From the NCBI GenBank assembly GCA_021018995.1, contig CM037590.1, positions 106,021,097 through 106,085,096 of the forward strand: 64,000 nt of DNA. The letters run 5' to 3'. The DNA comes from Chloranthus sessilifolius. Its lineage: Eukaryota > Streptophyta > Magnoliopsida > Chloranthales > Chloranthaceae. The notes under the pieces were generated by a model. That model was given only the letters and a program-made list of their open reading frames with translations, was not told the origin of the DNA and made no database searches. The position numbers were made by a program, and so were the translations under genes. Each line of letters begins with the position of its first letter. Positions within the stretch are counted from its first letter, which is position 1. Positions 2,742-56,884 of the stretch are shown one piece after another.

Positions 2742-4157
2742 ATGGATCCGCTTTCCAGCCCTCCCTTACACGGAGGGCTCGGCGTCAAATTTTCCCCTTT
2801 GTTGGGCTTGGGGCCCAAATTTTTAATGGCCTGGTTTGGGAGCTTGAATGAGAGTGAGATTGCCGACTTGGAGAGCCTTGGGCTATCTCGCCTTCCTTCC
2901 TAGAGGTTCCCCTTCGGTGGGAACTTCTTCATGCCGCCACTTCATTTTGGGATGTGAATTTCCACACATTTCGTTTTGGGAAGCGAGAGCTAACCCCAAC
3001 CCTTGAGGAGCTATCTAATCTATTTGGCCTAAAGCTTCACAGGGGCCTTGCAAGAGTCATGCCTCGGCCGGGTTATTCCAAATCCGTTCACCTTACTCTC
3101 GGTTTGAAGAAATCTGAGTATGAGAAAAGTCTCATTGGGGGGCCCACAAGGTGTTCGCTAAAATTCCTCAAAGAATTTTTCGGTGACGAAAGCCTCCGAA
3201 AATTGTCGGTTAGGAATGTTTTTAACGTGAAAGCCCTAGCACTCGGTCTCATCTCTGAAATCCTTTTCTTCACCGAGGGGGAGAGCTTCTCATTGGCAGT
3301 TTGTGATATTTTGGCGGAGCTGGAGGCGGGCCGGTCCATGATGCATTTAGTGCTGGCCGAGCTGTATCGATGCCTTGATTCCTTTGCTTTGGGTAAAGTG
3401 GAGGGCCTTCGGAGATGCCCCTTGTTGCTTCAGGTCTGGTTGGGTGAGCATTTTGCTATTTTGGGGCCCGTGCCCCGCTTTTATATTGCCCGAGGCGAGG
3501 TGGTCCAATGTTTTCTGGCTCAATGCCACCTGCTCCCCTAGGACCTTCCCGATAATTCGTAGTAGAGATCACGAGGGCATCACCCTCCTAGGATTGACGG
3601 GCAACACCTTTTACTTCCCATTCAGTGTGTGCGTGGTTGCCCTCGAGTGCCTTGTGAGGCCAGACCCCCTTTATGTGATTTGATCTTTTCTAGGGGGCCC
3701 TCTCGGGACATAGATCGGATTGCTGCTCTTTGGGAGACGCGTCAGTCAACGCTGATGTGTGATATTGAGTAAGGAGGCTTGGTTAGGACTTCTCCTGAGT
3801 ACGAGGCCTGGTTGTTGACTGAAGGGCTTGCTGCCAATGATCCAAATTTGTCAGAGATTATTGACACTGGAGGTCCCTGGCCAAAGAAAGAGACGACCCT
3901 CCGAGCCCGCATTGAGTTACTGGTGGATGAGAAGAGGATCCTGCAAGAACTTTTAGCATATGAAAAGGTTAGGGCAGAAACAGCAGAGAGTGAGGTCCTC
4001 CGTTTGAAGGGATCACTGAGTGTCGCTTTTGGAGCCACTAATTCTTCTCATAAGAGGTTTCAAGAGCCCGCATGGTCGTTGGCTGACCGAACGGAATGTT
4101 CGGAAAGATGACCTTCATGCTGAGATTAGTGCTTTGAAGTGTGAGCTGGGTCGCTAA
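2742..4157 (+). pseudogene. aORF2: antisense DUF7745-like gene with C-terminal coiled coil (Tat-L)
   Basis: ATG at 2742 (MDPLSSPPLHGGLG) is matched by an ATG in the Tat-R copy, which fixes the start. The middle part (about 2954-3541) reads FHTFRFGKRELTPTLEELSN, then VMPRPG, then ALGLISEILFFTEG, LAELYRCLDSFALG and CPLLLQVWLGEHF. This is the pattern of the plant DUF7745 family, which is related to the mobile-domain proteins. About 3800-4157 encodes a charged Leu/Glu/Lys-rich stretch typical of a coiled coil, ending ALKCELGR. Lesions are a frameshift and stop near 2901, a stop at 3540 with about 70 bp missing relative to Tat-R, and further stops near 3680-3770. Function unknown; the family assignment is from memory of its motif pattern. 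Confidence 0.7.
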
Positions 4158-17674: not shown

Positions 17675-18588
17675 GGCTGCAACACACTCAACACTTTATC
17701 AAATTTCTGAGACAAACTGTCCACTTTCTTTGCTAGGTCATTGTACACATTTAATTCATATAACTTTCCTTTAGAAGTGAGTTCTCTTATAGCTCTTGCA
17801 GCAGACTCAATACCATTCCTTGATAGAGTCTCTTGCTGCATAGAGTTTTCATTGATAATATCAAACAAGTCCCAAACTTCTTCATCAGGCTTGCTGAGAT
17901 AAGTTCCACCACATGAAGCATCCACCATATCTCTACTTTTAGAATCAATCCCCTAGTAAAATCTTTGAACAAGCTACCACTTGGGGATTTGGTGGTGTGG
18001 ACACTGCCTCAGCTATTCCTTAAATCTTTTCCAACCTTCATGAAAATCTTCAGTTGAGAACTGAGCAAAAGAAATAATGCTCTTTCTCAACTGACTAGTT
18101 CTGCTCATGGGGAAAAATTTAGCCAAGAACTGACATTGTAGAGCATTCGAAGATGTTATGCTATTAGGTGGGAGCATGTTAAGCCAATTTCTAGGCTTAT
18201 CCTTTAATAAAAAAGGAAAAAGTTTCATTTTAGCGGCTTAATCTCCCAGGCCAACAATTTTAAATGTAGTGCACAAGAAAAGAAACTCATCAATGTGCTT
18301 GTAAGGGTCCTCTTTACTTAACCCATGAAAGGATGGTAATATTTGGATGGTCTGAGGTTTAATTTTATAATTGCCCTCAGCAGTAGGGAACTGAATGTAA
18401 AAAGGGGATAGATATGCCTCTGGTGCATAGTAGTGCCTCAGGGGTCTAGATTGCTCTCCCATCTCTAATGTTTCTAAGTGATCAGCAGGTGTAGGTGATG
18501 TGTGCCTAGGTGTAAGGACTCTTTCTATTTCAGGATTTAAAGGTTCAAGCTCAGGATGAAGAGACCTTCTACCCAGCATACAATACAC
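17675..18588 (-). pseudogene. Athila-A gag, truncated
   Basis: Starts with MLGRRSLHPELEPLNPEIER (a further Met is three codons upstream) and continues with ILPSFHGLSKEDPYKHIDEF, LQCQFLAKFFPMSRTSQLRK, FAQFSTEDFHEGWKRFKE and MVDASCGGTYL, all matched in Athila-C gag. This is the Athila form of the retrotransposon gag domain. Stops are seen near 18238, 18012 and 17950. At 17675 the frame runs into the LTR of Tat-L, which explains the foreign last codons of the open frame. Confidence 0.88.
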
Positions 18589-18923: not shown

Positions 18924-18941
18924 TCCCCGACAACGACACCA
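18924..18941 (-). promoter_or_regulatory. Primer-binding site of Athila-A
   Basis: Minus-strand TGGTGTCGTTGTCGGGGA, complementary to the 3' end of plant tRNA-Asp with one change. Athila elements are known to use this tRNA. Beyond these 18 bases the similarity to tRNA stops. Confidence 0.85.
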
Positions 18942-23837: not shown

Positions 23838-25972
23838 GTATCTGATCAGTAACGATCGTATGCTAAAGAAAGTGACATTCGAAGAGGCCCAAGGCAACAC
23901 TATTGGGTCCTATTTACTTAAAACAAACCTTAAACATCAAAATGGAAAGAAACATGGAGAGTAACATAAGCCCATCACATTGGGAAAACGTCTATTACTC
24001 AAAAAGAATAGTTGCAGAATCTCATATCATTGGGAAAACGTCCGTTCCTCAAAACTATCGGTCCCCAAGCGCTTAGCGATATTACTGGGCATAACTCAGA
24101 TGGTTAAGAGATTGATGATGTTCGATGTTCAAGTTTCATTCCGAATAAAATAGCCTCGCGAGCGGGAGGGTGATCGTCTCATACTCAAAGATTGGTGTAA
24201 TGCAAAGACGCAATGATCCATAGTTTATGTCTAATCGCATGAGGCATTGATTGCCCCATTTGATCAGCCACGAGTGCCCCTACGCGAGGTAGGGTTCGAG
24301 ACTTTTGGGTGAACCAAACAATCTTGAGGATCTTTGATAGCACAACTATCCGAGTGAAGTGAATATTGATATCGCAACACTTTTTGAGAATGTGTCCCAT
24401 TTTTTAGAATGTGCCCTGGATCAACATGACCTAGAGCACCTAACTTTAAATAATACTGACCAGATCCAACCAAAATTGGGTATCTATAGAAGGAGACACT
24501 TAATCTTGGTCTCTGCCGACAATGATCTTATAAATTATTTAACTATGCAAAAATATACACCCATTAGGGGTGATAAGCAAGAAGGCGATGAAAGTCCTGA
24601 CCCAGATCCTGTCCAGGTATAATTTACAGGAACAAACGACCATCCTATGGATACTCAAACACATGAAACCTATCTAAGGGAAACTGTGCCAATGAAGGTT
24701 TTAAGTCTACAGAAAGATAAGAGAAATGAACCCTTCTGCATGCATGTTTGTACATAGTTGATCGATATGTAGTTTTATTTTCAATAGGTTGGTCTTAACC
24801 AATGATTGACCTTTTTCTGAGGAATCTGAAGCTTAAGACACTAAAGTTCTCATGAATCCAAAGACAGAGCGCTTAGCTCGGAGATTTAGTAGTGAAATCA
24901 ACCTAATTGAAACATTGACCGCTTGATCGGTGGCAGGGTAGGCCAGTAAAATAGTTAATTTTAGTGTAGAAATGTTGGTTGAATTAAGATAAATAAAGTC
25001 AATTCTCACCTAACTATGTTAGAAAGAGGAAATTAAAAAATTTTGCAGACATTTTAAAACTGAAAATCTTTGAAAAGTTAACACCTCCATGAAGTCAACT
25101 TCAAGAAATTTTTATTAGTACTTAGTGAAGTATAGAGGAGAGAAAAAGGTGAAAATATACCCCATGAGTTAAAATTGAGGACCATACCTAGTGAGATTTG
25201 GGCCTATCAAATTTCTTTTGAAGATTTTTCCTGCTCTAAGGAATGACTGATTCAACACATTGTCACTAGAAGTTAGGCACCCCAAGTTGAAACTGATTGG
25301 TAGTACTCATGACATTAAGGAGATGATCTAAGGCCTTTATTTGGACAGTTTGAGCTTAAAAGACCTACCCATTGAACTGCCCTTTGTATACACTCTTGGA
25401 GCCTTTAAATCCATTTTTCTTCAACAAACACTAGAGTACTTGAACCCAAACTTCATGATCTAATTCAACCTTACCCTCACTCTAAGATTTTAGAAGGTAA
25501 AGGAGAAAATGTTGAAGATAGTTGAGAGGAGTTCAATATTTGGTGGAAGAAGAAAAGAAAGCCATAAACAGCAGTGTATTAGTGGTATATGTGTGGCAGT
25601 TCATCATTAAAATATAAAAATATATATAAAAAAAAGAAAATAAAAAGAGAGGTCAAAGAAGTACCTCATTTGAAAATTGAAAAGAAGAGAAGAAGTTGGC
25701 CACTTTGGATCTGCAAAACACAAATGAAGATGAAGTTGTGATAAAATGAAGAAGGTGAAGTCATGAATCACCTCCTCCCCTTGCTGAATTCTCAATTTTG
25801 AATCCATTCTACCCCTTTTATTCTTTATAAACCTCACCCATAAGGCACATTACAACCCATCTAAAAGACCTTATTGATCTAAAGTGAAATGAGATGTCTT
25901 GTGGAGATGAGGGGATGTCTAATCTATGGTGAAAGTACATGAGGATGTCAGAAATTAGAAGCAAGGCCTATG

Positions 25973-26040
25973 TAGTATACTGGTGAGTATTCCCGCATGT
26001 CACGCAGGTGACCCAAGTTTGATCCCTGACAACGGCACCA
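25973..26040 (+). tRNA. Reverse-transcribed tRNA-Asp(GTC) copy, positions about 8-76, not a gene
   Basis: Reads TAGTATACTGGTGAGT, then the anticodon arm with GTC, then the T arm and CAACGGCACCA. Against plant tRNA-Asp from memory there are about 10 differences in 70 bases, mostly G-to-A or C-to-T. The 7 bases of the 5' acceptor strand are missing, and the CCA that plants add after transcription is present in the DNA, so it was copied from a mature tRNA. It is joined through 6 bases to an LTR end, exactly where the primer tRNA would be. The B box is mutated, so expression is unlikely. Confidence 0.85.
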
Positions 26041-26577
26041 AAAACTTACTGGTTAAGATTGCTTATGCTTTTTATTATTATTAAAAATATGATCAAAATA
26101 AAGAATGACAAAGACAAAAATAGAGGGGGAATGAAATGGAATGAAACAACACAAAAAATAGCAATCGAAACTCACAATCCTGCAAGATCTAGGGCTGTTG
26201 TAGCAAGTTTTAATAAGGGTTTGTCCCATGGAGAGTATGATCTAAAAACACAAGAGAGGAATAGTAAATCTCCGAATTTGGCTTCAGATGTGGCAACTCT
26301 AAACCTAAACTAGAAAGCAAGGTAAAGAGAGGGTGTTTAGGTGTCATAAACTAAAGTAAAACAGGAATAAACTATAGCTAAAGAATGGGGGAAAAGAAGG
26401 TTGATGATGGGTTGGTAAAATAAAGTAAAAATGTGGAGAAGTAGACGTCTATGGGCTATTATTCATTGCAAATTAGATCAAGATGCTGGATCTACAGCAA
26501 ACCTTCACTTGGCTACAAGCACAAGTGCAAGGTAGAAGAATCCAACTAACCCAGAGGCATGAACTGATCTTAGGGTT

Positions 26578-26609
26578 ATATTCTGTCCACTTTAATAGTC
26601 ACAGTATAT
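26578..26609 (-). ncRNA. Leader hairpin, LTR-tRNA insertion, copy 2
   Basis: Arms ATATACTGT and ACAGAATAT in element sense pair at 8 of 9 positions around CTATTAAAGTGG. Confidence 0.55.
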
Positions 26610-26975
26610 CCTAAGCGTTTCATCCAAGCAAGAGGTTAGAGCTGAAATAAGAAAACTATTATAGACACTATGTGTGCATGGCTACAAGATCATGCATCCA
26701 TAAGAGCAAACAGTCCATGAAAATCTAATGAAAACCACTAGAAATCATAGGCTAAATGGGGATTTAGAATCAGCTGGTCATTGCTACAAAGTGACCCACA
26801 ATAACCAAGCTCTCAAGTCTATAATATGTACAAAATCTCAGGTCAATTCACTGAAGATGGTGATATCAAACAAAGGAGAAGTTAGCTCTGCAACAGTCCC
26901 TCATTTGGCTACAAGCACAATGGCAGGAAAAAAAGAATTCGGCTCAGCCCTGTGATCTAGACCAGTCTTAGGGCT

Positions 26976-27007
26976 ATAGCTTGTCCATTAAAATGGCCAC
27001 AATCTAT
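26976..27007 (-). ncRNA. Leader hairpin, LTR-tRNA insertion, copy 1
   Basis: Arms ATAGATTGT and ACAAGCTAT pair at 8 of 9 positions around CCATTTTAATGG. It is 441 bp downstream of the TATA box. Confidence 0.55.
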
Positions 27008-27629
27008 CTCAGAGATTAACCCAATCACAAAGGTTAGAGATGGAACAGTAATACTACTGCTGCCACTATGGTTGCATGGCTACAAGCACATGCATCCATA
27101 GGTATATTAAACCCATACAAATTTATGTGAAAAACACAAGAAAAAGACAGATTTAATGGAACTTTAAAAATGACTTTTCATTGCCTAAAAATTACTTACA
27201 ATGATTGGCCCTCAAGGAAATAGTCCTTGCAAAAGTCTAAAACTGCTCTCTATGTTATTACAAAACCCGATTACAGCTTAGCATAAACCTAGCTGTTACA
27301 ATAAGTTAACCCAACATGGCTGCTGAGCTAAGGAAAGAAGAAGAGAATGGAAAAGGAATAAAACCCTAACCCTAAAAAGATAAAATCTAAAAGTGAGCTC
27401 AAGCTAATCCTGGCTCCCTTCCCAAGACAACATATAGCTCTATTTATACAATCCAAACAACCATTATGTGCTTTAGCCAATCAGAATTAAAACACTTTTG
27501 GAGCTGGTGTCATGGCTCATTTGTGGCCAAGTAATGCCTTGAGAAGTGTGGGATAGCTCAGCACCTTGGGATGTGTGCCCTAGATGCCGTGGAATCCTAA
27601 AAATTCCCTTGAATGTTGAATGGGAAGGC

Positions 27630-28470
27630 TGGAACCCGTGCCTCGAGCAGATGAGCTTCAGGAATATGAATCTTGAGTGGTTGGAATGCTTCAAGCAGCT
27701 TTAGGTTTTCAGCTCGACAGAATCTTGATAGGCTCTTGACAGGCTGATTTACAGCATCTACACTGCTCGAGCAACTACTTGCTTCATAATTTGTAGCTTG
27801 AGAGGATCTCGATAGGCTAGTCGATAGGATAAAAAGCAACACTTCAAGTGCTAGACAGGATCACTGGGCCTTAGGGAATTGCTCGACAGCTTTTAACACA
27901 CCAACAACTGCTCGACATTCATAAGGCTTCAAGTCATTGTAACTCGAGAGGCTCAGTGGAACTGCTCGACAACATTAAAGATTTAGCAATATATTGCTCG
28001 AGTTCTTCTGGGCAGCAGCTCTATAGGTCAAGTGGTTGAATCCTTCAGGCCATGAACTGCTCGAGTATGTGTATAACTCCAGATCTGCAGCTCGAGTAGT
28101 TCAGTTTCCAGCAAGGGCAGCTACTCAACAACCTGGTTTCAACCTCAAACTGCTCGACAGGTATTAAAGCTTCAGGTCTCAGTTGCTCGACAGCAGGCAA
28201 CAATAGCAGCAACTGCTTGAGTGGCTTCAATAGCTTCAGCAAGAGTGCTTTTAGTAGCATCTCGACTGGTTCACTTTAGAACCACTCGACAGCTTGGAGT
28301 GTTGCTCTAGTAGATGATCCTCAAGGCCATGAACTGCTTGAGTGGCTAGTCTATAAGGTGCTGCACAATAGCTCCTGCTTCAGCAACTGCTTGACAGCAA
28401 CTGCTAGCTTCAGGTGCTCATCTCATGGGGCTCATGTCTGGAGCTGCTCGAGTATTTGCTGTAGAGGCTC
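27630..28470 (-). repeat. CTCGAG/CTCGAC motif array in U3 (LTR-tRNA insertion)
   Basis: Twenty or more copies of CTCGAG, CTCGAC and near variants, many as CTGCTCGAGCAG-like pairs. Confidence 0.75.
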
Positions 28471-29423
28471 TTGCTGTAATTCAATTGTGCTCAAGATGTA
28501 AGTAAGTGCAGTGTTGTAGTTGTCATGTGCTCAACTTTAACTGCTGAAACTGGTTGTTAGCAGTTCTATATAATCAGTTGCAGCAGCACTCCACTAAACT
28601 TGGGCTTCACTTCTCTCCCTCTGCAGGACTTCTAGGACCCCAATGCATGCAAAATAGCCCCAATAGTGTGAACCACCATGGTGCAGTCAATTAATCCCCA
28701 TCAGCTCCACTTTTTATCTGAAAATTATTTCTTAGCTCTAAAATGATGAATTGCTATACTAAGTTGCAGTTTATTATCATCTACATAAATACACTTAAAA
28801 ACTCATTATGAACCAGCTCAAAGGTCCATTAAAGGCTAGGTTAGGAGGTGAAAAGTGGTATATTTCAATGATCAACACTATGCTCATGGTTGCAGCCCTA
28901 TTTGAGGTCTGTGACTGATCTTGAGCTGAAGAGAATATGACCACCTTGGATTTTCATTGTTGAGAGACAACCCTGATAAGGATTGGGTCTGAAAATTAAA
29001 TGCATTGGGGTAGTATCTAAATCTAATTTTTGAATCAATAGTGAGCCTAGTACTGATTTTCACACAATGTATTCTTAATGTAAACTGATTGGTGGTGATG
29101 AAAACACGCTGATTTGAGTTTTAAATTGTTTACATTACTGCTGTAAATTCCTCTAATTTTTAAAGAATAGGTGTGGAATGATGCCTTATTTATTGAAATC
29201 TATTTTTTCATTGGCTGCACTATACTTAACTATTTTAATGGGGAAGTTTGTGGGTATCTTTACTGAAAACCCTCAGGAGACTTCACTCCTCCACTAGGGA
29301 TTACCTAGGGGTTTAAAAGGCTTGATGCATAACCTAAATACATCCGTGTTCCGTACGAAAGTGGCATTTACTTTTTAGAATAACTGTTTTAATTTTTCCT
29401 TTGCTTGAGGACTAGCAAAGACT

Positions 29424-29436: not shown

Positions 29437-30772
29437 TGTTGAGCACAGAAATATACTACTTTTCACCTCTTAACCTGACCTTTAAGGGACCTTTGAGCTA
29501 GTTAATAATGAGTTTTTAAGTGTATTTTTGTAGATGACAATAAACTACAGCTTAGTGCAATAATCCATCATTTTAGAGCCAAGAAGAAAGAATTTTGAGT
29601 CAAGCTATGGAGTTGATGGATTTACATTGATTACACCATGGTGGTTCACACCATTAGGGCTATTTTGCATGCATTGGGGCCCTAGAAGTCTTACTGAGAG
29701 AGAGGTGAAGCCGAAGCTTAGTGGGATGATGCTGCAACAGATTATGTAGGACAGCTGTAGGCACATTACAGTAGATTGCACACTAAAAATTCCACACTCA
29801 AGTAGCTACACCAACCTGCATAGCTACTGCCTTAATATACTCGAGCAGTTGTTACAGCACTAAATCTATTCATCCACTCGAGTGGATCAGCACCTTCGGC
29901 AGTTAGGCTCGAGTGGATCTCGAGTACTTCAGCAGCTGAAATATTAGCTACTCAAGCAGTTGCTCTTGCTGGAAACTCAGCTGAAACTCGAGCAATTCAT
30001 GGTCTCTATATATAAACACTCAAGCAGCTGAGAGCTACTGCACTCCACTTGTCGAGCAGTTCACACCTGAAGTAACCCACCTACTCGAACTACAGACATG
30101 TTGCATTAATCCACTCGAGTAGTTCAAGACTTGCTGCTGCAAATACTCGAGCAGCCTCTCGAGCTGAAGACCTGAAGACCTAAAGCCATTTACACACTTG
30201 AGCAGTTGCTCTGCGGCTGTAATTAATCCACTCGAGCAGCACAGCATCCTGTCGAATGGTTCTGAAGTGGACCTGTCGAGCAGCTGGATTTCAACCTGTT
30301 AAGCAACACATGATCCTGTAGAGCTACTGTGATGCACTTAAAGGCTATTTTATTCTGTCGAGAGCTTCTCGAGCAGCCTCTCGAGCTATATTTTTGAAGC
30401 ATTCCCGCCACTCAAGAACCTCTCGAGATGCAGAATCTGAAGCTCCAACCTCTTGAGATCTGCTCGAGATGAAAATTTTGAAGCTCTATCTACTCGAGGC
30501 ACGGGTTCTAGCAGCCATATTCAATCTTTAGGGGCATTTTTAGGATTCCACAGCACCTAGGGCACACATCCCAAGGTGCTAAGTTGTCCTACACATCCCA
30601 AAGCATTTACTTGGCCATAAATGGGCCACGACAGTAGCTCCAAATAGTTTATTCTTTTCTTTTTTGATTGGCTAGAGCTTTTAGCTGCTTTATGAATTGT
30701 ATAAATAGAATAGAATTTGTCTTATGATAGGAGCCGAGATTAGCCTGAGCTCATTTTTAGACATTTTTAGGT
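29437..30772 (+). repeat. 3' LTR of Athila-B, cut by Tat-R
   Basis: Begins TGTTGAGCAC; 1336 bp remain, including the CTCGAG array (29820-30500) and a TATAAATAG box near 30706. The part downstream, with the hairpin, is missing because Tat-R inserted at 30773. Confidence 0.85.
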
Positions 30773-32340: not shown

Positions 32341-33913
32341 TGTTAATCAGTGAAAAGTATCACTTTTCACCTCTTAACCTAGCCTTTGCTGGACCTTGAA
32401 GCTCACTAATAACTCCTTTTTAGCTTGTTTTGTAGTTAGGAATAAAGTGTACAACTTAACACAAAGTCTGCTGTTGGTGCCAAGAAGAGAGATTTCAAGT
32501 AAAAGATGATAGTTGAACCAAAAAATGATGGACCACCATGATGGTACACACCATGGTGACTAATGTGCATGTCATACTGGAACCAGAAAGTCCAACAGAT
32601 ATTAAAAGAATAGGTGAGAATGGAGGGAACTGCAACAAAAGCATGTGCATAGCAACAGAGGAGTAAGGGACCTATTTCGCGCACTTGAGGTGTAATCTCA
32701 CGCTGTTTAAGTCACTGGCAGAGCTCCCTCATGCAGCTAAGACATGCAGCGTAATAGAGATGGCAAAGAAGTCGTGCAATTCAAATGGCGGGAGTTACTA
32801 CAAAGTTGCGCATTTCACTGCTGCTCTCGCCCAGCAGTCGTGCACTTAAGCTGCAAGCATTATATGGAGAAACTCGCAGAGCTTTCTCACTCTAAGTATA
32901 CCTCGCACAATTCTTGCATGACCCTGGAGGAGAGAGACACCCAGAAAACTTCTCGCTTAGATCTCGTGCAGCTCACGCGCGCCTAAAAGTCTAAGTCTAT
33001 ACCGAGCGAGATGCGAAAGGCATCTGCACGAATACCCCGCGAGTGAAGTTTCTGAAGCTCTTCTGTGTGAGCAATCAATGCACTGAAAGTTCTTCTGCGC
33101 AAGTGCATTCACGGCTGAAGCAACCGCGCGATCATCTAAAGTTCTTCTGTGCGAGATAGCAGTATTCCATGCTAAGCTCTACCCCATGAACACTTTGCAT
33201 ACTGCGTGACAGAAGTGAAATGTAAAAGCCAACCCCTCGAAGCTTGGGCTCTCCACTTCTCAACCCTAACTCAAGGATTTTTTAGGAATTCTCTAGGTCT
33301 AGGGCACGCACCTCGAGGCATGGATTTTGACGCACGCATTCTAAAGCATCCAATGGTTGTAATAGTGCCACGTCTGCTTTAAGAAATTAGGGTTTACTCT
33401 TCTCTTAGCCACAACATTGAGACTAAGTATATAAGCAACGCTTATAACTTAGCAAATCATCATTCTCCTTCTCCTTCAACCTCTGTCAACTGAGAGCTCA
33501 AGCAGGCTAGGGTTAGGGTTAGGGCTTTATCACCTCTTTTTCCATTTTTTTCTTCTCTCTTAGCTTAGCACTTGCTGGCTAAACCTTTGGTAAGCATTTA
33601 TGTATAGTTTTATGTAAGTTTTATAATAGATCAGTAAACATTGAGACTCGGTGTTGAGCTGTTGTGCACAAGGCTGCTGCCTTGAGGGATTTCCTTGTTA
33701 ATGACACCAGATCAATGGAATCTTTGTTTGAATGCTTACTCAATCTGTTATTTTTCTATTTGTTCGTAGTTCTATTCAAGCTATAGCATACATTTAGGAT
33801 TTGACCTTATTGAAAGGCCCATGGAAGCTTGAGCGTGATGCCCTGGGATCATGGTGGTAGACAATAGTTTTTATGCTTTATCTTTATATTTGTGGGTAAG
33901 GGATCCTCTGTGG

Positions 33914-33945
33914 ATAGCCTGTGACCATTTAAGTGGATAGACTAT
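33914..33945 (+). ncRNA. Leader hairpin, solo LTR, copy 1
   Basis: Arms ATAGCCTGT and ATAGACTAT pair at 8 of 9 positions around CCATTTAAGTGG, 486 bp downstream of the TATA box. Confidence 0.55.
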
Positions 33946-34458
33946 AGCCCTAGGGAAAACTTAGTCACAGATCTGAGATCTATTCTTCTTCTCTGCATTG
34001 GGACTTGTAGTTTAGTGAGAGATTGTGCAGGAATAGACTCCCTTCTATTTTACTTGATCGAAATTAGATGTTAGTTAGCTTCTCTGTAGTGATTGCAGCT
34101 ATGAGGAAATTTGTATTGCAAGCTATTTCTAAGCAATAACTTGTTGATTAAAAGTATAATTAAATCTAAAGATCGTATGGTTTCCTTAGATGTCTATAGG
34201 ATTCATGTTTTAGCGAATAACCCATTCAGTTTTTAGTAGATCTACTATTTACCATCTGATTTCTCTTGGTTTAATACCCATATGAATGTCAGCCATATCT
34301 ATGTGCAGATCTGGGGAGCTCGTAGCACTGACAAACATAGTATTGTAATGGCATTCATGCCCTGATCTGATTCCCTGGATGAGGTTTGATCAGCTTACTC
34401 CTCTAGATTAGATTAGCAACTTCTGGCTTGATCAATAGGATTGAACAGACTCTATAGG

Positions 34459-34490
34459 ACAGTCTGTGACCATTTGAGTGGACAGACTAT
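34459..34490 (+). ncRNA. Leader hairpin, solo LTR, copy 2
   Basis: Inner arms AGTCTGT and ACAGACT are perfect complements; 8 of 9 pairs in the full arms, around CCATTTGAGTGG. Confidence 0.6.
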
Positions 34491-35003
34491 AGCCTTAGGA
34501 GCACCCCAAATGGCATGGGTTAAGTTGGATACTTTCACCTTGTTGAGGTTAGTAATAGCACTTCAGTAAGGACTAGCTGTAGAGAGAGCCCTAAATCTGA
34601 GTTGCATAACTAAATAAATCTGTAACCTAAGCTGCTTACTTCTCACCTTTTTTATTCTTATTTTAACACACCACCATCCTCTTCTTTATAACCCTTTCTT
34701 AGGATAGGACTACACTTTATTTCTTTCTTTAGGTAATTTAGTGTAGGCATGACACCCAACTCCCTTTCTTTAGGATTGCCAGATCTGTAGTCAGATCTGG
34801 AGGCCTACTATTATATCTCATTTTTTGTTCTAGATTAACTTCTCTGTGGGACAAACTCTTACTACATTATTTCTTTAATTGTGCTGTTGCCATTATCTTT
34901 AATTTGCTTTACATTATTTCTTTTATTATTTGTTCTCACCACACAATAAGCAAGCACACTAGTAATAAAATAAAGGAATCCCGAATTAACAAACAATAGG
35001 TGA

Positions 35004-46459: not shown

Positions 46460-48426
46460 TGTTAAGCAGTGAAAAGTACAATTTTTCACCTCCTAACCTG
46501 ACCTTTGGAAAACTCTTGAGGTGTCAAATAATGTGTTTTAAGTATGTTTTATAGATAAGCAATAAATTACAACCTTAGCACAGACAATCAACAAAAAGGG
46601 CAGACAAGCAATCTGCAGCCTCAACCTATGCTCAAACTCCAACAATCCACAAAGCTTGAGAAACTCATTGAAGGCCATGAACCTAACTGGGTGCACCTGA
46701 GACTAAGTACAATGCCAATGGATGAAGATTGAATCCACCCAGAGGTGACTAAGGGCAAGACAGATGAAAGACATCACATTAGAAGTGCGTACCAGTCAAG
46801 AAAGCATAGAAATCAAGCTGTCGAGGGGTTCTCTTAAGTTGCTGAGAGGATCTAGTGCCTAAATGAGAAGATATCAAGAGGATTGATTTACATGTTGAGA
46901 GGTTTAACTGAACCTATTGTGCAGTGCACTCAATCTTGTCGACAACTGCTAGGCGCATTCCTCGAGATGATGAAAAGAAGCTGTTGATAGGATCTGCGAC
47001 AACAAATCGATGAGTCGACCAAAACCTATCGAGGAGATGAATGAGATGATCACCAATCCTATTGACAAGCGTCATCAATCATCTCGATAGGTCTACAAAC
47101 CTATCGATTTGCATGCAAAGCCAAACAGAACCTGTCGAGAGGATCCCAGAACCTCTCGACACTCGATTTGGAGAATTTCTCAATTCTGTCTTCAATAGTT
47201 GTCCATGCCAGAAACCTATGCATGTGTTCCAAAGCACGTCAGTGACCCTTGAGGGTATTTTAGGCACATAATGGGCCACGCGCGGAAACCCTAACGGTAT
47301 CACATGTACTTGTCAGATAAGAGCCAATGGGAGAAGTGCTTCTAGAAGAGAAATCGGCCACATCAACATAACAGAATTATTCCCTTGCATTCTGATTGGC
47401 TGAAATGGATCTGAGGATAAAGGAGGAGAGTATAAAAGCTTGGAAAAAATGCAGAAGAAACGATCCAGAAATTGAGAAAACTAGAGCTTAGGGCGAGATC
47501 CATTTTCCCAAAATTCTTCCTTCTTCTTCCTCCTCTCTCCCTTCTCTCTTTAGCCAATCATGAGTTGCTAAACTCTTCTCAGTAGTTAGGGTTAGGTCTT
47601 AAGCTATAAATTGACAGATTCAAAGGCATTATAAGGAACTGTAAGATGCACAGATTGCAGATCTGAGCACAATTGTGTTGTAATTTTATAATATCATTAT
47701 GAATTTTAAAGGTGATTCTGATCTATATTTTACTTTTCGTATTTATTTTTCCTGGGTTGGATAGTCCTGTAGATGTTAGCCTATGAGGGTCTCATATCCT
47801 GGCATCTACAGTATCTGTAATGGTTTTCCTATTCTACTCAAGTTCTTTGAAGCGGAACAATCTCTAGGATGGTCTGTGACCATTAAAGTGGATAGATCAT
47901 AGCCTTAGGATTGCTTCAATTCTCTGATTGAGATTAGATTCTTATACCTCACCTCTGCCAGGGTAACCTGGGAAGCTAGGAGCCAGAAAAGAGGATTGTA
48001 GCAATTCAGATCTTAGCATTGCCATTGATTCCTTTGATTTTCAGTGGGAGTCCAATACCCCTAGCTGCTATTCTCATCCTTTGATTTTTCATCCCTTCTA
48101 TATCTCCCCTTACCTCAGTGTCAAATTAGATCTAGATCAGTAGCATTTAATTCTATAGTCTGTAGTTAAAGTGACAAAACCCCAAAACCTCTCCTCTTTC
48201 TTAGATTAGGATAGAGTGCCAGATCCACTTTGGATCTGGAGATTTGCTGAAAGTTAGACCACATTTCCCTATGGACATACCCTTACTTACCCTTTCAAAA
48301 CTTGTTGTAATAGCCTTGAATACTTGCAGGTCTGTGAGTCTGTTTGCCTTGGTGTGTGTGCAATCCAGAGATTCCATAATTATTTGATTTTAAACCCCTT
48401 TTTGAGCACAAGGTAAATGGCCCACA
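46460..48426 (+). repeat. 5' LTR of Athila-C
   Basis: TGTTAAGCAG to CCCACA. TATAAAAG at 47431-47438. U3 contains many CTGTCGAGAGG and CTATCGACAGG variants (46810-47170). Hairpin at 47869-47900. Confidence 0.93.
47869..47900 (+). ncRNA. Leader hairpin, Athila-C 5' LTR
   Basis: Arms ATGGTCTGT and ATAGATCAT pair at 9 of 9 positions (two G-T) around CCATTAAAGTGG, 438 bp downstream of the TATA box. Confidence 0.6.
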
Positions 48427-48432
48427 AGTTTT

Positions 48433-48450
48433 TGGTGCCGTTGTTAGGGA
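48433..48450 (+). promoter_or_regulatory. Primer-binding site of Athila-C
   Basis: TGGTGCCGTTGTTAGGGA, 6 bases after the LTR, matching the 3' end of tRNA-Asp with two changes. No further tRNA similarity follows. Confidence 0.88.
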
Positions 48451-48771
48451 TTTGTGTTTCTAACTTGGTAGATCTATGTTTTTCTCATTTTTTGGTTAAC
48501 ATTTTCTAATTGTTTGACAAGTGTTTGATTAATTACTGCTTTAGTTTTTACTGTAGTTTAACTCTGTTTCAGATCTGGATCTGTGGAGCTAAGAGGAGCT
48601 CTGTATCACTTGAAAAAGCATTTAGTGCTTAAGTTTGCATCTCTTAACTCTGTTTCTATTTCTAGATCTGTAACTTAGTATATCAGTAGTTGTGTAGTTG
48701 TCTGTCTTGTGATTGAATTGTTATTCCTTGCACTGTGATTTGTTGTGTTGTTCTTGATCCTTGAGGTGTGT

Positions 48772-51259
48772 ATGCTTGGGAGGAGATCTCTTAATCCTGA
48801 AATTGCTCCTTTGGATCTTAAGGTTGAAAGACTTCTCAGACCTAAGCACCCCTTACACACTTCTATTCTTGATTATGATAATTCTGCAATGGTGAGCAAC
48901 CTAGGACCTTAAAGGAATTCAATGCACTAGGGGGCATTCAATTCCCTACTATTCAAGGGAACTATGAGATCAAGTCCTCCATTATCCAAATGCTACCCTC
49001 ATTCCATGGCCTGAGCAAAGAAGACCCATACAAGCACATTGATGAATTTCTAGGACTGTGTACCACATTCAATATTGTAGGTTTGGGGGAGGAAGCAACC
49101 AGGATGAGACTCTTTCCTTTTTCACTAAAGGATAGAGTCAGAATTTGATTGTCAATGCTCCCAACCAACAGTATTCAGTCCTGGAGTGACCTTCAATGTC
49201 AGTTTTTGGCCAAGTTTTTCCCCATGTCCAAGACAAGCCAGTTGAGAAAGGGCATTATTTCATTTGCTCAAACCCCAACTGAGGACTTTCACCAAGCATG
49301 GGAGAGATTCAAGGAGCTCCTGAAGCAATGTCCTCATCATCAAATCCCTGAATGGCAACTTGTTCAAAGTTTCTATCAGGGAATTGACTCTAAAAGTAGA
49401 TATATGGTAGATGCCTCTTGTGGTGGTACCTACCTCCACAAAACTGCTGAGGACGCTTGGAAACTGTTTGATATCATCAGTGAGAACTCCATACAAAGAG
49501 AGACATTGGTTAGGGATTGTGAAACTCCTAGAATGGTGAGAGATAATACCATGAGAGGAAAAATGTATGAGGTGAGTGGACACAATGATTTGGAGAGGAA
49601 AGTGGACAGTTTAACCCAAAAATTTGATAAGTTCATGGGAGCAATGCAGTCACCCATGGCTGCTACAATAGAGGAGGCATGTGTTATATGCCAGTCCCCC
49701 ACTCACTCCCTTGAGGAATGCCCTTCATCTGTCCAATTTCCTGATCTTGTGATGGAACATGTGGTCTATCATTTTTTGGTAATGACCACCGCTGGTTACC
49801 AATGGAGAAACCACCCCAATTTGAGGTGGAGACAAGATACTCTTCCAAACTAGCAACAACAGCCACAACAGTCCATGCCATATAAAAATGCTCAGCCTTA
49901 CCAATAAAATTACTTTCCAAGGCCCCATTACCAACAACCCATGGCTCAACCTGTATAACAAACTGCACCCCCTCCAACTGCTAGATCACTTTCTTTTGAG
50001 GAACAAGTTCTGGCCTCGTTGTAAAATTTAGGGCCCTCGTCTCAAACTGTACACTCTCATCGCCAAAGCATTAAAAAGATAGAAGACCATCTTGGCCAGC
50101 TATCTAATGCTTTGACCAACAGAGAGGAAGGGAGGCTACCTAGCCAACCCATGGACAACCTAAGGAGACAATATGCAGTAGGTGAGGTCTCCTCTTCTCA
50201 TGAGGAAGCCAAATCTGTCATCACATTGAGAAGTGGAAGGTTGGTGGACAATCAAGTAGGCTGTGAGCCTGTGAAAAATTCAGAAAAAGAAAAAGAAGTA
50301 ATTATAGAGAATGTACAACAAGAGAAACTCATGTTGAATAAAGAGGAAGATGATGATCCTCAACAAAAACATAAAAACAAAAAGAAGGATGATAAATTAG
50401 TTAAGGCTGCAAATGGGGGAGCAATCCCACATTTACCATTTCTTAGCACCTTCTCCTTTTGATAAAGGGCATGCCAAAGTAGAGGAAATGATGGAAACCT
50501 TTAAACAAGTAAAAATCAATTTGCCTTTACTTGATGCAATAAAGCAAGTTCTAGCTTATGCCAAGTTTTTACAAGACCTTTGCACCCACAAAAGACAATC
50601 AAGGATATATCTCTTCAAGAAAGTCTTTTCAGCAGATAAAGTGAAGCAGATACTAATTATTGCAACCCCAACAAAGATCCAAGACCCTGGAGTCTCCACT
50701 ATCCCCTGCATCATTGGGAATCATACCATTGAAAAAGCCTTGTTAGATCTGGGAGCTAGTATAAATTTGCTTCTATATTCAGTATATGAGAAGATGGGCT
50801 TAGGAAAATTGAAGCCCACACATGTAGTCTTACAACTAGCTGACAGATTTGAGAGGAAACCTATGGGGATCATAGAAGATGCCTTGGTTGGGGTTGACAA
50901 ATTCTTTTATCCTACTGATTTTCTGGTGCTAGATATGGAGCTGAGCAAATGTGCTACTTCTATCCCTGTGATCCTAGGCAGACCATTTTTTGCCACTGCA
51001 AATGCATGCATACAATGTGGATCAGGGGACATGGAAGTAACTTTTGACAATATAAAGGTCAAATTGAATGTTTATAATACAACTAATCAAACTCACCTGA
51101 ATAGTGAGGACTATTTTTTTCATTAATGCATTAGGTGAGCTTGTAGTTGATAATTTGCCCAAGTTGCTGCCCTATGATAAATTGCTTGATGATGGTGGTG
51201 ATATATTTGAAAATGCAGTGATGCCTGAGAAGATCACCCATTTCCATGAACCCCCATAG
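48772..51259 (+). pseudogene. Athila-C gag-protease
   Basis: Starts MLGRRSLNPEIAPLDLKVER at 48772 like Athila-A. 48950-49853: gag domain with LPSFHGLSKEDPYKHIDEF, LQCQFLAKFFPMSKTSQLRK, MVDASCGGTYL and a zinc knuckle CVICQSPTHSLEEC. 50112-50462: charged linker with the Athila landmark KSVITLRSGR. 50413-51126: aspartic protease with LLDLGASINLLLYSVYEKMG (DLGA in place of the usual DTGA or DSGA is normal in Athila) and VILGRPFFATANA. The last codons run to FHEPP at 51259. Stops or shifts occur at 48911, about 49150, 49851, near 50025, and 51124. Confidence 0.9.
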
Positions 51260-52235
51260 CAGGTCTGAATTTCAATGATGTCCACTATGTATACTAGATG
51301 TTTTGTTTTATTAATTTTGTTGCTGTTTTTGCTTTTTGTTCATCACTGTTTAGCATTCTAAATATGGTGTAATACATGCAAGCACTAAATTGGTGTCATC
51401 ATTGGTTAACTTTGGGTAGCGTCTGTGTAAGTTGAATTGGGAGTCGACAAAATGATGTGCAGAGTGGTACTGAGGAATGATTTAAATCGAATTGAACTGC
51501 TTTTTAACCTGTCGAGAGGTTTGAATTCATTATCGACAGGTATTGGAGGTGTAAAAGTGATTGTTGAAAGGTTCCGACGCTAATCGATGAAGTTCTCGAT
51601 AGGTTTAGGATACACATCGAGAGGATATTCTAACCTCTTGTAGTGTTTGTCTCTGGAACTTGGAACCTATTAAGAATATGTCGCACTGAGCTGAAATGGT
51701 TGTCGAGAGGATCTGTAATCCTCTCGAAGGGTTCCTGTGTAATTTTAGAACCTATCGACAAGATTAAAATCAAACCGCTCGCGAAGAATGGCTACTTTTC
51801 ACCCGTCGACAAGTAGGAACTACCTGTCAACACCTTTCCCAATCCATTGAAAATCGATTCTTTCTTGTTAAAACCTAACGGCAGCTTCATTTTCCATCAT
51901 TCGACACCTTCTCTTTGTGTTGCGAGTTACTTTGGCAATTTTTCTCGCTTTTGGTTTCTCCCTCTCCACCTCACTGGCTGTTATTGCAACCTCCTAGCAA
52001 TTTTGTACATCATTTTAATTCATCAAAAGCTACATTTTACACCTGGTTCAAGCTGTTTTGGTCCCGTGCCCATCTAGATATCGCAAACCCTAGATTTCTG
52101 TCAGTAAGCTTTCCTTTTGCTTCGCTCTGTTATTTCAAGTTTGGGAGTTTATATTGTGAATCCGGGGGAATAATTTGAGCATCCTCAAAAGCTTGTGTGG
52201 TGATTAGTTGTGAATTTGAAGTGCTTGAGTAATCA
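51260..52235 (+). other. Non-coding stretch where pol is expected in Athila-C
   Basis: About 1 kb with no RT, RNase H or integrase motif in any frame. 51490-51830 contains CTGTCGAGAGG-like motifs of the same kind as the U3 array. Presumably the leader of the downstream ORF. Confidence 0.75.
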
Positions 52236-55139
52236 ATGGACGAGCAAGAGGACGTCTTAGCAAATCTTTTCAAAATGCCTTCTAAATCTGCCACCAAAGC
52301 CACTAGGACACCTGTTAGGCAACTTGCAAAGCCTAAGGAGACCCCCCCTGAAAAAAGAAAACTTGCCATGGATAAAGCTGGGCAGACTATAAGACACAAG
52401 AAGACCAAAAAGGCTAAAAAGGTCTAAATTAGTGAAGAAGTTGTTGCGGAAAGGCCCTGAGATAGTATCGGCCACTAAGCCTAAAATCCCTGAGCTGGAG
52501 GTCAATGTCAACTTGTCCACACCCAATGAATTTGTGGATGAATTAAATCTAATCTCGAAAACCATTTTTGACACCCCCTATTTTTCTAAGCTAGGGGAGT
52601 GTCAGGATACTTTGAATTATCTGGTGAAGGCAGGCTTGACACCCATGATGAGCCCATTGAATGAAAAATCTTACCCAAGGTTGGTCAAGTTGTGGTATTA
52701 GAATCTCGAGAAAAAAACCAAGCCAAATTCTATTAAGCCTTGCCTAGTAATCCTGATTGATCAGATGAAAATGGTGGTGGATTACAGAGATATAGGGATA
52801 TCATTAGGAGTCCCTTCTATTTATGACCCAGTTTATGGCCTGACTGCATTTGAGAAGGTCTCTTTCAAATCTATGGCCAGGCTGCTGACTCAAGGCATTG
52901 TAGGGTCTGGGGACTTAATTAGGAGAAGAGATTTATCCCCTAGCTTGCGATTTTTTGATTCAATTTTGTGAAAGAATGTCTATGTTAGTGGTCATCAGCA
53001 ACAGAGACGAACGCCAATAATGGATGCCTTGCACTTCTTCGCTAAAGGGCAATTTGTTAATGTTGTCTGGTTGGTGTTTAAAGCAATGATAGATGTGCAT
53101 GATAAATGTAAGATTACTCAAGCCCTACCAGCAATTCCCTACAGCAAGCTCATAACGGCTTTGCTTAGGAGTAAGGGATTCGTGTTTAAAGAAAATGAGG
53201 AAATAGAGAAGTTGAAGCCCATAGTGTTTGGAAAAAGGGCTTGGTCTGCCAGTGGGACCCTCATTGGTAAAGGCACCCACAGGTCAACTGAAGAGATTGA
53301 GGAAGAAACTCCTGACACCTCTATTGTCCCGAGTTCAGCACCCCCTGGCTCGAAGCCCCCCCTCGTATCCTCTGCTCCCTCTTTCACCCCAACCATTGAT
53401 CTGCAGTTCTCTATGGCTAGTTCCATTGCTACAAGCTCCACCATCCCTCCATCTCTCACACCAACCAACTCCCCTTCTTTTCCTTCCTTGCCAGTTCCCA
53501 TTCCCCACAATAGTCCAGTCTCCCTATCCACAACCATTTCCACATCCACCCCATTTTTAGCTCCTTCTCTCATAGACCACATCCCTACTTTGCCCTCATT
53601 CACCATTCCAACTAGCTCATTTACATCAACCACTAGCCCTTTCAACCCTTCCATGCCTTCTCCACTCTTCACTCCCCTTGCGAGTGAGCCAATTTTTTCT
53701 CTCTCCACTGCCCTAACCCAAGACCTATCAACCACTGAAGGATTTTCATCCATGATGACATCCATAGTGGAGGATATTGGGCATGACTATAATCCACTAC
53801 CTGACTCTCCACAGCCCACATTCCCCCATTTTTCTCATTCTCAACCTCCTTCAACCTCTGACCAACATGCCCACACTTCCTCATTTCCACTACCCCCTCT
53901 CTTCCAACACTCACCTGCTATCAAACCTGACCCCTTACCCCAAATCCTAGATCTCCTCCAATCAATACAATCCCATGTGCTAGCCAATACCACTACCCAA
54001 TCTTCCATTGGGGCTATACTCTTATCCATAACATCCACCCTTCTCAACCAGGCTCCCATCTTCCAGATCTTATTAGCCATCTAATCTTCATTGACCAATT
54101 TACCCCAACCAGCTCCACAGCCACCTATTCATGTACCTACCCCACCTACTTCTCCACCGCACCATATTGCAGAGGTCACTACACCTACCTTCACAGATGC
54201 CTCCACCCAAACTGACCCTGAATCTCCTCCACCACATTTTCCACCTAGCCCTGTCATTTTACCTTCCCCTGAGGAACTGGCATCCTACATTCCCTCATCT
54301 TCCTCCGCTCCACTCCCTTCCCTCCTTATTGTTCCCTGCCATTCCTTCTACATTCCCCCTTACCTCACTCTTTTGTATGCAATGCGGGATAATCCCTACA
54401 TCCATAGAGATGTCCTAAGAGGAATGGCTGCTCTCCGCTCTTCCCTTAAGCCACCTATGAGGAGAGGATTGCGGACATGGCGCTGGAGCACAAAATCCTA
54501 CTCCGAGATATCTCGCAAGGTTGGAAGAAAACACTTGTTCATTATGAGTCAGCAAAACTACTTGATGACGCTGAGCGTGTCATTGCCACAACCAAGAAGA
54601 AGAAAGTTGAATTCCTCCAGAAAAAATTGGACAATGCCCAGGAGATAAATAAAGCCACACCAGAACTCGCTGAGTCCAATCTCCTTTATGCACAGAAGAA
54701 AATTGAAATTCTGGAGAGAAGGATTGCTACGCTGACCTCTCAACCATTTCAGCCAACCCCCCTAGCTACTGCTCCTCCCTCCAATCCCACTTCCACTCAA
54801 CCTACTCCTACTCTACCTGTGGATGTTGCTCCTCCCCACACTGAGCCTGCCCCTCTAGAGCCTAAGCGAACTTCTTCAAGGAGAAAGGTCACTACAAAAA
54901 GATCTGTCCCATCTCGTGCTACTCTAAAGAAAGACAAAGGACATGCGGCCTAGTCTGATGAGGCACCAAGCCAGGCAGCCCAGAAGTCCCAACCCAAGAA
55001 GAAAAGACCTCTCTCCAATGATGAATTGAGGAAACTAGCTGATCTCTATGAATGGCCTGATGATGCTAGAAAAATAATTGTAGCATGCTTTAGTTTTCTT
55101 CATGTAGATTTACTTTTCAGTTCTGCATACTCCCTGTAG
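52236..55139 (+). pseudogene. Additional ORF of Athila-C (env position), nuclear-protein-like
   Basis: ATG at 52236 (MDEQEDVLANLFKMPSKSAT) and a Lys-rich stretch (KKTKKAKK). Then a globular part at 52432-53220, with ALPAIPYSKLITALLRSKGF, similar in pattern to the putative plant transposon protein domain found in Athila additional ORFs. Next is a long Ser/Pro/Thr-rich region (53340-54400), a coiled coil (54500-54730, with KKVEFLQKKLDNAQEINK) and basic clusters (SSRRKVTTKRS). No signal peptide or membrane segment is visible, so an envelope role is not supported. Stops and shifts at 52425, 52699, 52969, 54082 and about 54480. Family assignment is tentative. Confidence 0.65.
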
Positions 55140-56871
55140 ACAGTGTAATACAATTTCTTTTTTATGTTGCTTAGCTTCTTTAATGATTATGTCATTTGTT
55201 TGTTTTCTTTCTCTATGTACTTTTGTTGTTACCATGCTGCACTACACCCTTCTCTCTGAACAGTGAGGGCACTACTCCTCATAGGTTTGGGGGTGTGACA
55301 AAGTATACCTTGCCAATAGGATAGTTAATGTTAGTGCAGCCAGAATTGAACAAACAATCTATGAACAAATGAAAGGAATCCCCACCTAATTTTTCTTTAT
55401 AAGAGGAAATGAAAAACTTTTTAAATTAAAAGTATTGGAGTTCCAACATGTGCAGATGGTAAATGTCAAGAAAATTTTGAAAATTAGTGCTTTCTGAACT
55501 TGAAAAAGAGAGAAAATTATGAGGTTATACCCCAGAAATCTGATGGAAGACCACACCCAGTGAGATTTGGGCCCGAAATTTTTTTCTTGAAGAGTGTCTT
55601 AGCAATTCTTTCTACTCCAAGGACTGACTAGACCCTGCTCTAATAACTAGAAGTTAGGCAATTCCAAGTTGAAATAGCTTGATAGCACTCATGATATTGA
55701 GGACATGAAGTAAGGCCATCCCTTGGACAGTTTGAGCTTAAAATGCCCCACCTTTGAACTGCCCTTGACACACACCTTTTGAGCTTTAAAATTCCTAATT
55801 TTCTTTGATAAAAACCAGGAAATTTGAACCCAAAAACCTCTCGACCTATTTCAGTTCACCCTCAATCTGAGAAGTCAGGAAATAGAAGGAGAAGTGAGGT
55901 TAGAGGTGTAAGGTTCGATGTTTGGTTTAAAGAAGAAGAAGTATATTTGAAGGCTAATATGATATATAATTGTGGCATTCCAATCCATAAAAAAAAAAAA
56001 AGGAATGAGAATGAGAAAGAGAAGTCATTTCATTGAAAGATTGAAAATAGGATTAGAAACTGATCACTTTAAATCCGAAAATTCAAGAAATAGATAGAAT
56101 TGTGCTGAAATGAAGAAAGGGAAGTCATGAACCACCTCCTTACCTTTATTGATTTCTCAATTTGAATCCTTTTTGCCCCTTTTACAAATTTCACCCATAA
56201 GTCACATTACAACCCAATAAAAAGACCCTACTGATCTGAAATTAATTGCGCTTTCATATGGAGATGAGAAATTGTTTAACCTATGGTAAAGAGAGTTAGG
56301 GAATTTCATAAACTAGAGCAATACCTATGCTCATGCTTGCAGTCCTCTTTGAGGGCTGTAACTGCTCTTGGGTTGTGTGAATTGATACACCCTTCTATTT
56401 TTGATTGAGAGTGTCTACCTAGTGAGATTTGGGTTTGAAGTCAAGTTTGTTGGGGGCATAATTAATACATGATTCTCAATTTAACGATAAACTTTGCACT
56501 ATTTTTCACACAAATTACTTGGACATGAGCTGAGTGCCTATGAAGGAGCCACAAGAGTCCTTTGGTTTAAACTACCATATTTTTGCTGAGAATCCTCTAA
56601 AAACTGATTGGACAAAGGTGTGGATTGAATTTTATGATTGCTTGCTGGTTGCTTCAATATTTTGTACTAATATTAACTTACCTTATTGGAGAAGTTTGTG
56701 GGTAACTTCACTATAAACCCTCAGGAGACTTCACTCCTCCACTATGGATCACCTAGGGGTTTAAAAGGCTTGATGCATATGCTAAATGCATCTGTGTTCC
56801 CTATAAAGTGGCATTTTTCATTTTCAATAATTATTTTCTCTTTCTCCTTTGCTCAGGGACTAGCAAAGCTT
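55140..56871 (+). other. Athila-C 3' non-coding region
   Basis: No coding region. Aligns with Athila-B 24945-25972 and 28878-29423. Contains an internal copy of the polypurine tract at 55283-55295 and the empty site CTATG (56325-56329) for the LTR-tRNA insertion of Athila-B. Confidence 0.8.
55283..55295 (+). promoter_or_regulatory. Internal polypurine-tract copy
   Basis: AGGTTTGGGGGTG followed by TGA, the same 13 bases as the tract before the 3' LTR, 1.6 kb upstream of it and just after the additional ORF. Possibly a second plus-strand start. Confidence 0.6.
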
Positions 56872-56884
56872 AGGTTTGGGGGTG
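56872..56884 (+). promoter_or_regulatory. Polypurine tract of Athila-C
   Basis: AGGTTTGGGGGTG directly before LTR start TGTTAAGC. Confidence 0.88.

What the first reader, a model, noticed from the sequence alone, without database searches (positions are those of the whole stretch)
25973..28877. Integrated plus-strand strong-stop DNA carrying the whole primer tRNA
A single Athila LTR is joined through the normal 6-nt spacer to the tRNA-Asp primer site, and similarity to tRNA-Asp runs on far past the usual 18 bases to tRNA position 8, including the post-transcriptional CCA. The unit is bounded exactly by the 5-bp repeat CTATG, and the unoccupied site is seen in Athila-C (56325-56329). In reverse transcription, plus-strand strong-stop DNA contains U3-R-U5 plus tRNA copied up to the methylated A58. 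Here synthesis seems to have read through the tRNA, and the product was integrated by integrase with a tRNA end instead of an LTR end. Athila-A and Athila-C show only the 18-nt site, so it is not a family feature.
Basis: partly seen in the sequence, partly recalled or inferred. Interest (0 to 1): 0.9.

Follow-up and report, generated by a model that had tools for sequence, protein, structure and literature searches.

The report
Retrotransposon end fused to primer tRNA
A plant retrotransposon end sits in the genome still joined to a nearly complete copy of the transfer RNA that primed its synthesis, apparently a fossil of a copying step that normally stops early and is then erased.

Summary
The insert 25973-28877 is one LTR (minus strand), the 6-nt spacer, and the complement of tRNA-Asp(GUC) from its CCA end to position 8. 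It is flanked by the 5-bp repeat CTATG, and a related element has the empty site at 56325-56329. Beyond the 18-nt primer site, 44 of 50 bases match plant tRNA-Asp (recalled letters); the next best place in the window has 26, and the leaders of three other elements have 5, 10 and 16 of 50. ARAGORN finds nothing by default but calls tRNA-Asp(gtc) at a relaxed threshold.

The exact repeat at the tRNA end argues strongly against a deleted element with a long leader. Integrase most likely joined a cDNA whose U5 end still carried the copied primer tRNA. The break at position 8 fits a full tRNA copy trimmed by 7 nt, close to the 6 nt normally lost (inference).

It is a single locus: the genome search did not complete (18 requests), so recurrence is untested. 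The "Athila" label is unproven.

The parts
25968..25972 (.). left target-site duplication CTATG
25973..28877 (-). whole insertion: LTR + spacer + complement of tRNA-Asp positions 76 to 8
25973..26022 (-). tRNA-Asp extension beyond the 18-nt primer site (50 nt; reads as tRNA on the + strand); 44 of 50 match the recalled plant tRNA-Asp
26023..26040 (-). 18-nt primer-binding site, complement of the tRNA-Asp 3' end with CCA (15 of 18 match)
26041..26046 (-). 6-nt spacer AGTTTT between LTR and primer site, identical to that of element C
26047..28877 (-). single LTR, TGTTGA...CCAGTA
28878..28882 (.). right target-site duplication CTATG
56325..56329 (+). homologous unoccupied site CTATG in the 3' region of element C
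29437..30772 (+). start and partial body of the 3' LTR of the host element H into which the insertion fell (82% identical to the focal LTR over 323 columns; right limit approximate)
48433..48450 (+). control: 18-nt primer site of element C (14 of 18); the following 50 nt match tRNA-Asp at 5 of 50
18924..18941 (-). control: 18-nt primer site of element A (15 of 18); the following 50 nt match tRNA-Asp at 10 of 50
32341..34998 (+). control: solo LTR in element B, flanks GGCAA/GGTGA (two differences), no primer site or tRNA

Best explanation
The locus is an integrase-made insertion of a plant Ty3/gypsy-type cDNA whose U5 end still carried the primer tRNA-Asp, copied into DNA almost to its 5' end. 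Steps: (1) minus-strand DNA primed by tRNA-Asp was made; (2) the tRNA was not removed, and plus-strand synthesis ran past A58, the usual stop, to or near the tRNA 5' end; (3) integrase used the normal U3 end and this tRNA end, trimming about 7 nt, and made a 5-bp duplication; (4) what remains is one LTR plus spacer plus tRNA. Shown by sequence: the composition, the exact junctions, the 5-bp duplication and the empty site. Inferred: steps 1-3. For the molecule that integrated I slightly prefer a complete two-LTR cDNA with the tRNA copy at its right end, later reduced by LTR-LTR recombination to a solo LTR (about 0.5), over direct integration of a single-LTR strong-stop product (about 0.35). The shared core (primer tRNA copied through and joined by integrase) I rate at about 0.85.
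For: CTATG on both sides, with the empty site in C; plant LTR elements mostly make 5-bp duplications (passage: 4 bp 6.2%, 6 bp 0.4%). The register LTR-AGTTTT-TGG is the same as in C, so the tRNA block is attached exactly where the primer sits. The tRNA match includes CCA, which is added after transcription and missing from the genes (passage), and continues to position 8 at 44 of 50; the leaders of A, C and a published Arachis sequence match at 10, 5 and 16 of 50. A review states that unmodified tRNA is copied to its 5' end and that m1A58 normally stops plus-strand synthesis (PMC13191261, passages). In an Arabidopsis RT-based tRNA survey tRNA-Asp(GTC) gave almost exclusively full-length sequences (PMC11658184, section 10), so no hard stop is expected once A58 is passed. 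The ordinary U5 end loses a 6-nt spacer on integration (C 3' LTR ends at 58848 directly before AAGGC); the tRNA end would have lost 7 nt, a similar trim.
Against: Single locus; no second example and no full-length element with a 3' tRNA was seen, because the genome could not be searched. The Arabidopsis survey could not see stops near the 3' end (reads under about 35 nt were removed) and reports an m1A58 signature as ubiquitous in nuclear tRNAs. No base change marks A58 here. The tRNA identity figure rests on recalled letters; Rfam is just below its cut-off and ARAGORN's default finds nothing. The two-LTR route needs strand transfer to succeed although the tRNA was kept. Integrase acting on an RNA:DNA hybrid end is not known to me.
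Confidence: 0.5

Rival explanations
1. One reading: over-extended plus-strand strong-stop DNA (one LTR plus tRNA copy), unable to complete second strand transfer, was itself integrated.
For: One cause explains both the tRNA end and the single LTR: by the review, a product running to the tRNA 5' end is not among those that can serve in transfer (PMC13191261 passages). The structure fits exactly.
Against: When plus-strand synthesis starts at the polypurine tract the minus strand already runs past U3, so it must be cut to give the exact TG terminus seen at 28877 (established pathway, inference). I know of no precedent for integration of such a molecule (recall).
Confidence: 0.35
2. Deletion derivative of an element whose normal leader carries a long tRNA-like stretch.
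For: Families with tRNA-like sequence exist (Helenus, PMC10886601), though there it lies inside the LTRs.
Against: A deletion would have to end exactly at the 5-bp duplication, at the far side of the lost 3' LTR. Leaders of A, C and a published Arachis sequence stop matching after the primer site. No close full-length relative of the focal LTR could be examined.
Confidence: 0.04
3. Recombination or fusion of a solo LTR with primer site and a genomic tRNA-Asp gene or tRNA-derived SINE.
For: Primer site and tRNA gene share about 15 nt, enough for microhomology (inference).
Against: Would be expected to carry on to tRNA position 1 and the gene's 5' flank; instead it ends at position 8 exactly at the duplication. 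The host DNA outside is continuous with element C.
Confidence: 0.04
4. Chance resemblance to a tRNA.
For: Rfam score is marginal (28.7 against 29; E 0.073 over the whole window).
Against: 44 of 50 identities at the one register predicted by the primer site; the next best place on both strands has 26. Anticodon GTC in place.
Confidence: 0.005

Closest known systems
Plus-strand strong-stop over-extension in HIV-1 with tRNA-Lys3 lacking m1A58
   Same: Plus strand copies the primer tRNA past A58, to the 5' end if unmodified (PMC13191261, passages).
   Different: Described there as a cDNA product, with lower infectivity of the virus; here fixed in a genome with a target duplication, in a plant element with a tRNA-Asp primer site. 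tRNA-Asp is not among the primer tRNAs that passage names.
Solo LTRs of Ty3/gypsy elements
   Same: One LTR, 5-bp duplication.
   Different: Ordinary solo LTRs end at the LTR, as the one at 32341-34998 does; here 74 more bases (spacer and tRNA) lie inside the duplication.
Two-LTR circle junctions with retained tRNA bases in RNase H mutants of retroviruses (recalled, searching for it, found 0 papers)
   Same: Primer tRNA retained at the U5 end.
   Different: Circular, and as I recall limited to about the 18 primer-site bases.
Helenus, tRNA-containing non-autonomous LTR elements (PMC10886601; abstract and sections 16 and 21 seen)
   Same: tRNA-like sequence linked to LTRs, 5-bp duplications in plants.
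   Different: tRNA-like part lies inside the LTRs, shows no complementarity to the primer site and is inherited by the family.
[quoted passage not shown] the paper itself is not held)
   Same: The question whether primer tRNA letters enter the element.
   Different: By its title the answer there is no; here most of the tRNA is in the genome.

Membership tests
Solo LTR of a Ty3/gypsy element | one LTR with canonical U3 terminus | tested here: met
   TGTTGA terminus at 28877 aligned with five other LTR starts
Solo LTR of a Ty3/gypsy element | 5-bp target duplication directly at both LTR ends | tested here: not met
   duplication is present, but on the U5 side it abuts tRNA position 8, 74 bp beyond the LTR end
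Integrase-mediated insertion | precise duplication and single-copy empty site | tested here: met
   gap-free alignment with C (a related element, not an ortholog)
Plus-strand strong-stop product | U3-R-U5-spacer-tRNA complement in this order | tested here: met
   (LTR as a whole; R was not mapped)
Plus-strand strong-stop product | ends at about 18 nt of tRNA (before A58) | tested here: not met
   extends to position 8
Plus-strand strong-stop product | only one LTR at the time of integration | not testable with these tools
   a solo LTR derived from a two-LTR copy has the same sequence
Athila lineage | RT/RH/INT phylogeny in the Athila clade | not tested
   no lineage reference used; the focal insert has no pol. 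Related element A has a G-patch; plant mobile domains lie opposite A and B, a domain reported in 57% of Ogre elements
Athila lineage | tRNA-Asp primer site | tested here: met
   15 of 18; but non-chromoviruses in general may use tRNA-Asp
Helenus (TRIM with tRNA-like LTR) | tRNA-like sequence inside the LTRs | tested here: not met
   tRNA block lies outside the LTR, at the primer site

The most novel reading that the evidence does not exclude
Plant Ty3/gypsy elements primed by tRNA-Asp may lack a firm plus-strand stop and so regularly make cDNA ending in a near-complete tRNA copy, which integrase accepts after its usual trim of about 6-7 nt. Such tRNA-ended insertions would be a recurrent second integration class, seeding tRNA-like sequences with CCA in plant genomes.
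Probability: 0.15. Interest if true: 0.8.

Novelty: new variant of a known kind. Interest (0 to 1): 0.55.

Why it matters
In the standard account the primer tRNA is copied for only 18 bases and then removed, so products that run further are known as cDNA intermediates. A genomic copy bounded by an integrase-type duplication would show that an end made of tRNA can be integrated. It makes testable, by a simple genome search, how often the A58 stop and primer removal fail in plants, and how integrase picks its cut when the end is not an LTR. It would also explain CCA-bearing tRNA-like pieces next to LTRs.

Tried and rejected
Rejected: chance match, ordinary extended leader, tRNA gene or SINE fusion, Helenus-type element.

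Considered for the break at position 8: an RT stop at m1A9. Human tRNA-Asp carries m1A9 (PMC7293042, passages) and zebrafish Asp-GTC too (PMC11417395, passages), but Arabidopsis tRNA-Asp gave almost exclusively full-length sequences, and A9 and T8 are both copied here, so I prefer integrase trimming; the two cannot be separated. Misincorporation at modified bases: 7 of 9 differences are G>A or C>T, as in ordinary decay of methylated cytosine; only 15 G>C and 32 C>A are transversions; A58 is unchanged. No signature claimed. A yeast T-loop paper (PMC11514469, passages) gave nothing on cytosolic tRNA-Asp in the passages seen.

Led nowhere: two scans of viral contigs for primer site plus tRNA-Asp body gave 0 matches; by inspection the first pattern would not have matched the focal copy itself, and the tool warns that records near the window's genome may be left out. 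A protein search with the C ORF at 52975-54081 gave no homologue.

In print: the searches aimed at the structure itself were (20 of 3,266 papers listed; 3 listed; 0 found; 1; 4) and in part 26 (15 of 187 listed). No listing named genomic LTR copies joined to near-complete primer tRNA; I judged by titles and abstract starts, except for the papers cited. (12 of 17 listed) were about the Athila primer site and tRNA modification; (20 of 21 listed) about tRNA letters. The library holds open-licence papers only.

Full report
What is there. The insertion 25973-28877 lies on the minus strand in the 3' region of an element (H), related to element C, whose own 3' LTR starts at 29437. In element sense it reads: LTR TGTTGA...CCAGTA (28877 to 26047), spacer AGTTTT, an 18-nt primer site complementary to the 3' end of tRNA-Asp, and 50 more bases complementary to tRNA-Asp down to position 8. 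CTATG flanks it on both sides at 25968-25972 and 28878-28882. The flanks joined with one CTATG align without a gap across the site to element C, where CCTATGCTCATG at 56324-56335 is the unoccupied form.

Is the tRNA part real? Against plant tRNA-Asp(GTC)+CCA as I recall it, 59 of 68 bases match; beyond the primer site 44 of 50. The recalled first 18 nt equal a printed tRNA-Asp primer (PMC6521008, passages); its partner primer, made for bisulfite work, does not equal the recalled letters, and the recalled 3' half was in none of the papers listed (20 of 21). Over all positions and both strands of the window the next best ungapped 50-nt match is 26. The same 50-nt stretch downstream of the primer sites of A, C and a published Arachis sequence (from; that it is a leader is my reading) matches at 10, 5 and 16 of 50. 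A BLAST of the 68 nt at E up to 1 finds only the 18-19 nt primer sites of C and A elsewhere in the window. ARAGORN finds nothing by default and tRNA-Asp(gtc), 75 bases, at a 60% threshold; its 5' seven bases are flank, not tRNA. Rfam gives 28.7 bits against a cut-off of 29, E 0.073 over the whole window.

What the duplication says. The base composition of the window gives a chance of about 0.001 for CTATG at a fixed place, and the empty site adds to that. Because the duplication abuts tRNA position 8, the tRNA end was one of the two ends joined at integration. A deletion in an element with a long leader, or a fusion with a tRNA gene, would not be expected to end there. The two bases TG before the tRNA block equal tRNA positions 6-7, but they are present in the empty site too, so they are flank.

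Ordinary ends in the same window. Element C (46460-58848) has flanks AAGAC and AAGGC (one difference); its 3' LTR ends in CCAACA directly before the repeat, while after the 5' LTR comes AGTTTT and then the primer site. So normal integration discards 6 nt beyond U5. The solo LTR 32341-34998 in element B has GGCAA and GGTGA flanks (two differences), no primer site, and ends in ATA. The focal LTR also ends in TA, and its tRNA end reads ...ATACTA. If the tRNA was copied to position 1, integrase removed 7 nt after a TA. This is an inference from one locus.

How it could arise. A review states that plus-strand strong-stop synthesis normally ends before m1A58 of the primer, that unmodified tRNA is copied to its 5' end, and that only products ending at A58, position 55 or position 54 can serve further (PMC13191261, passages). 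In an Arabidopsis survey tRNA-Asp(GTC) gave almost exclusively full-length sequences (PMC11658184, section 10). Two caveats: products under about 35 nt were removed, so a stop at A58 would not be seen; and the same paper reports the m1A58 signature as ubiquitous in nuclear tRNAs. The data therefore fit 'once past A58, RT runs to the end', not 'A58 is no barrier'.

Which molecule integrated. It explains the single LTR at once, but the minus strand then runs beyond U3 and must be cut there. Route 2: two-LTR cDNA with tRNA still attached and copied at the right end, integrated, then LTR-LTR recombination. It gives a normal U3 end and uses a common later step, but needs strand transfer with a retained tRNA. 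Both predict the spacer and primer-site register seen. The window cannot decide; I give 0.5 to route 2 and 0.35 to route 1.

Identity of the elements. A (minus, from 21063 leftward) and B (plus, 30773 onward, interrupted by C and the solo LTR) carry RVT_1 followed by the integrase core, the Ty3/gypsy order. A also has a G-patch. Plant mobile domains at 2861-3538 (+) and 62874-63482 (-) lie on the strand opposite to A and B, in regions that are inverted copies of each other. C has gag and a protease match below its cut-off; 10 of its 15 plus-strand ORFs of 70 aa or more were scanned and none gave an RT match. A survey gives the plant mobile domain in 57% of Ogre and Athila ORF-1 in 16% of Athila elements (PMC6317226, passages). 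I therefore keep to 'plant Ty3/gypsy-type, probably of the Ogre-Tat-Athila group' and do not certify 'Athila'. The focal LTR itself is linked to these by similarity only (82% to H over 323 columns, about 70% to A over 712).

Limits. One locus. Two viral-contig scans were empty and say little about plants. The paper searches aimed at the structure listed no report of it, but cover only open-licence papers, and searches listed only part of their hits.

Noticed in passing
49240-49345 (-) and 17987-18092 (+): Rfam plant snoRNA snoR71 matches (47.6 bits, above the cut-off of 40; and 34.9, below it) opposite the gag ORF of C and on the opposite strand of A in a related stretch. Either the Rfam family contains retrotransposon-derived sequence or the elements captured a snoRNA.
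   Followed up: no
2861-3538 (+) and 62874-63482 (-): Plant mobile domain (PF10536) matches on the strand opposite to A and B, in regions that are inverted copies of each other; may point to the Ogre/Tat side.
   Followed up: partly
32341-34998: Solo LTR in element B whose flanks GGCAA/GGTGA differ at two positions and whose end is ATA rather than CA.
   Followed up: partly
46460-58848: Element C has gag and a weak protease match but no RT match in the 10 of 15 ORFs scanned, and long ORFs at 52972-54950 without a significant Pfam match; the one at 52975-54081 had no homologue; possibly non-autonomous.
   Followed up: partly
26491-26744 and 26887-27143: About 70% identical direct duplication inside the focal LTR.
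   Followed up: no
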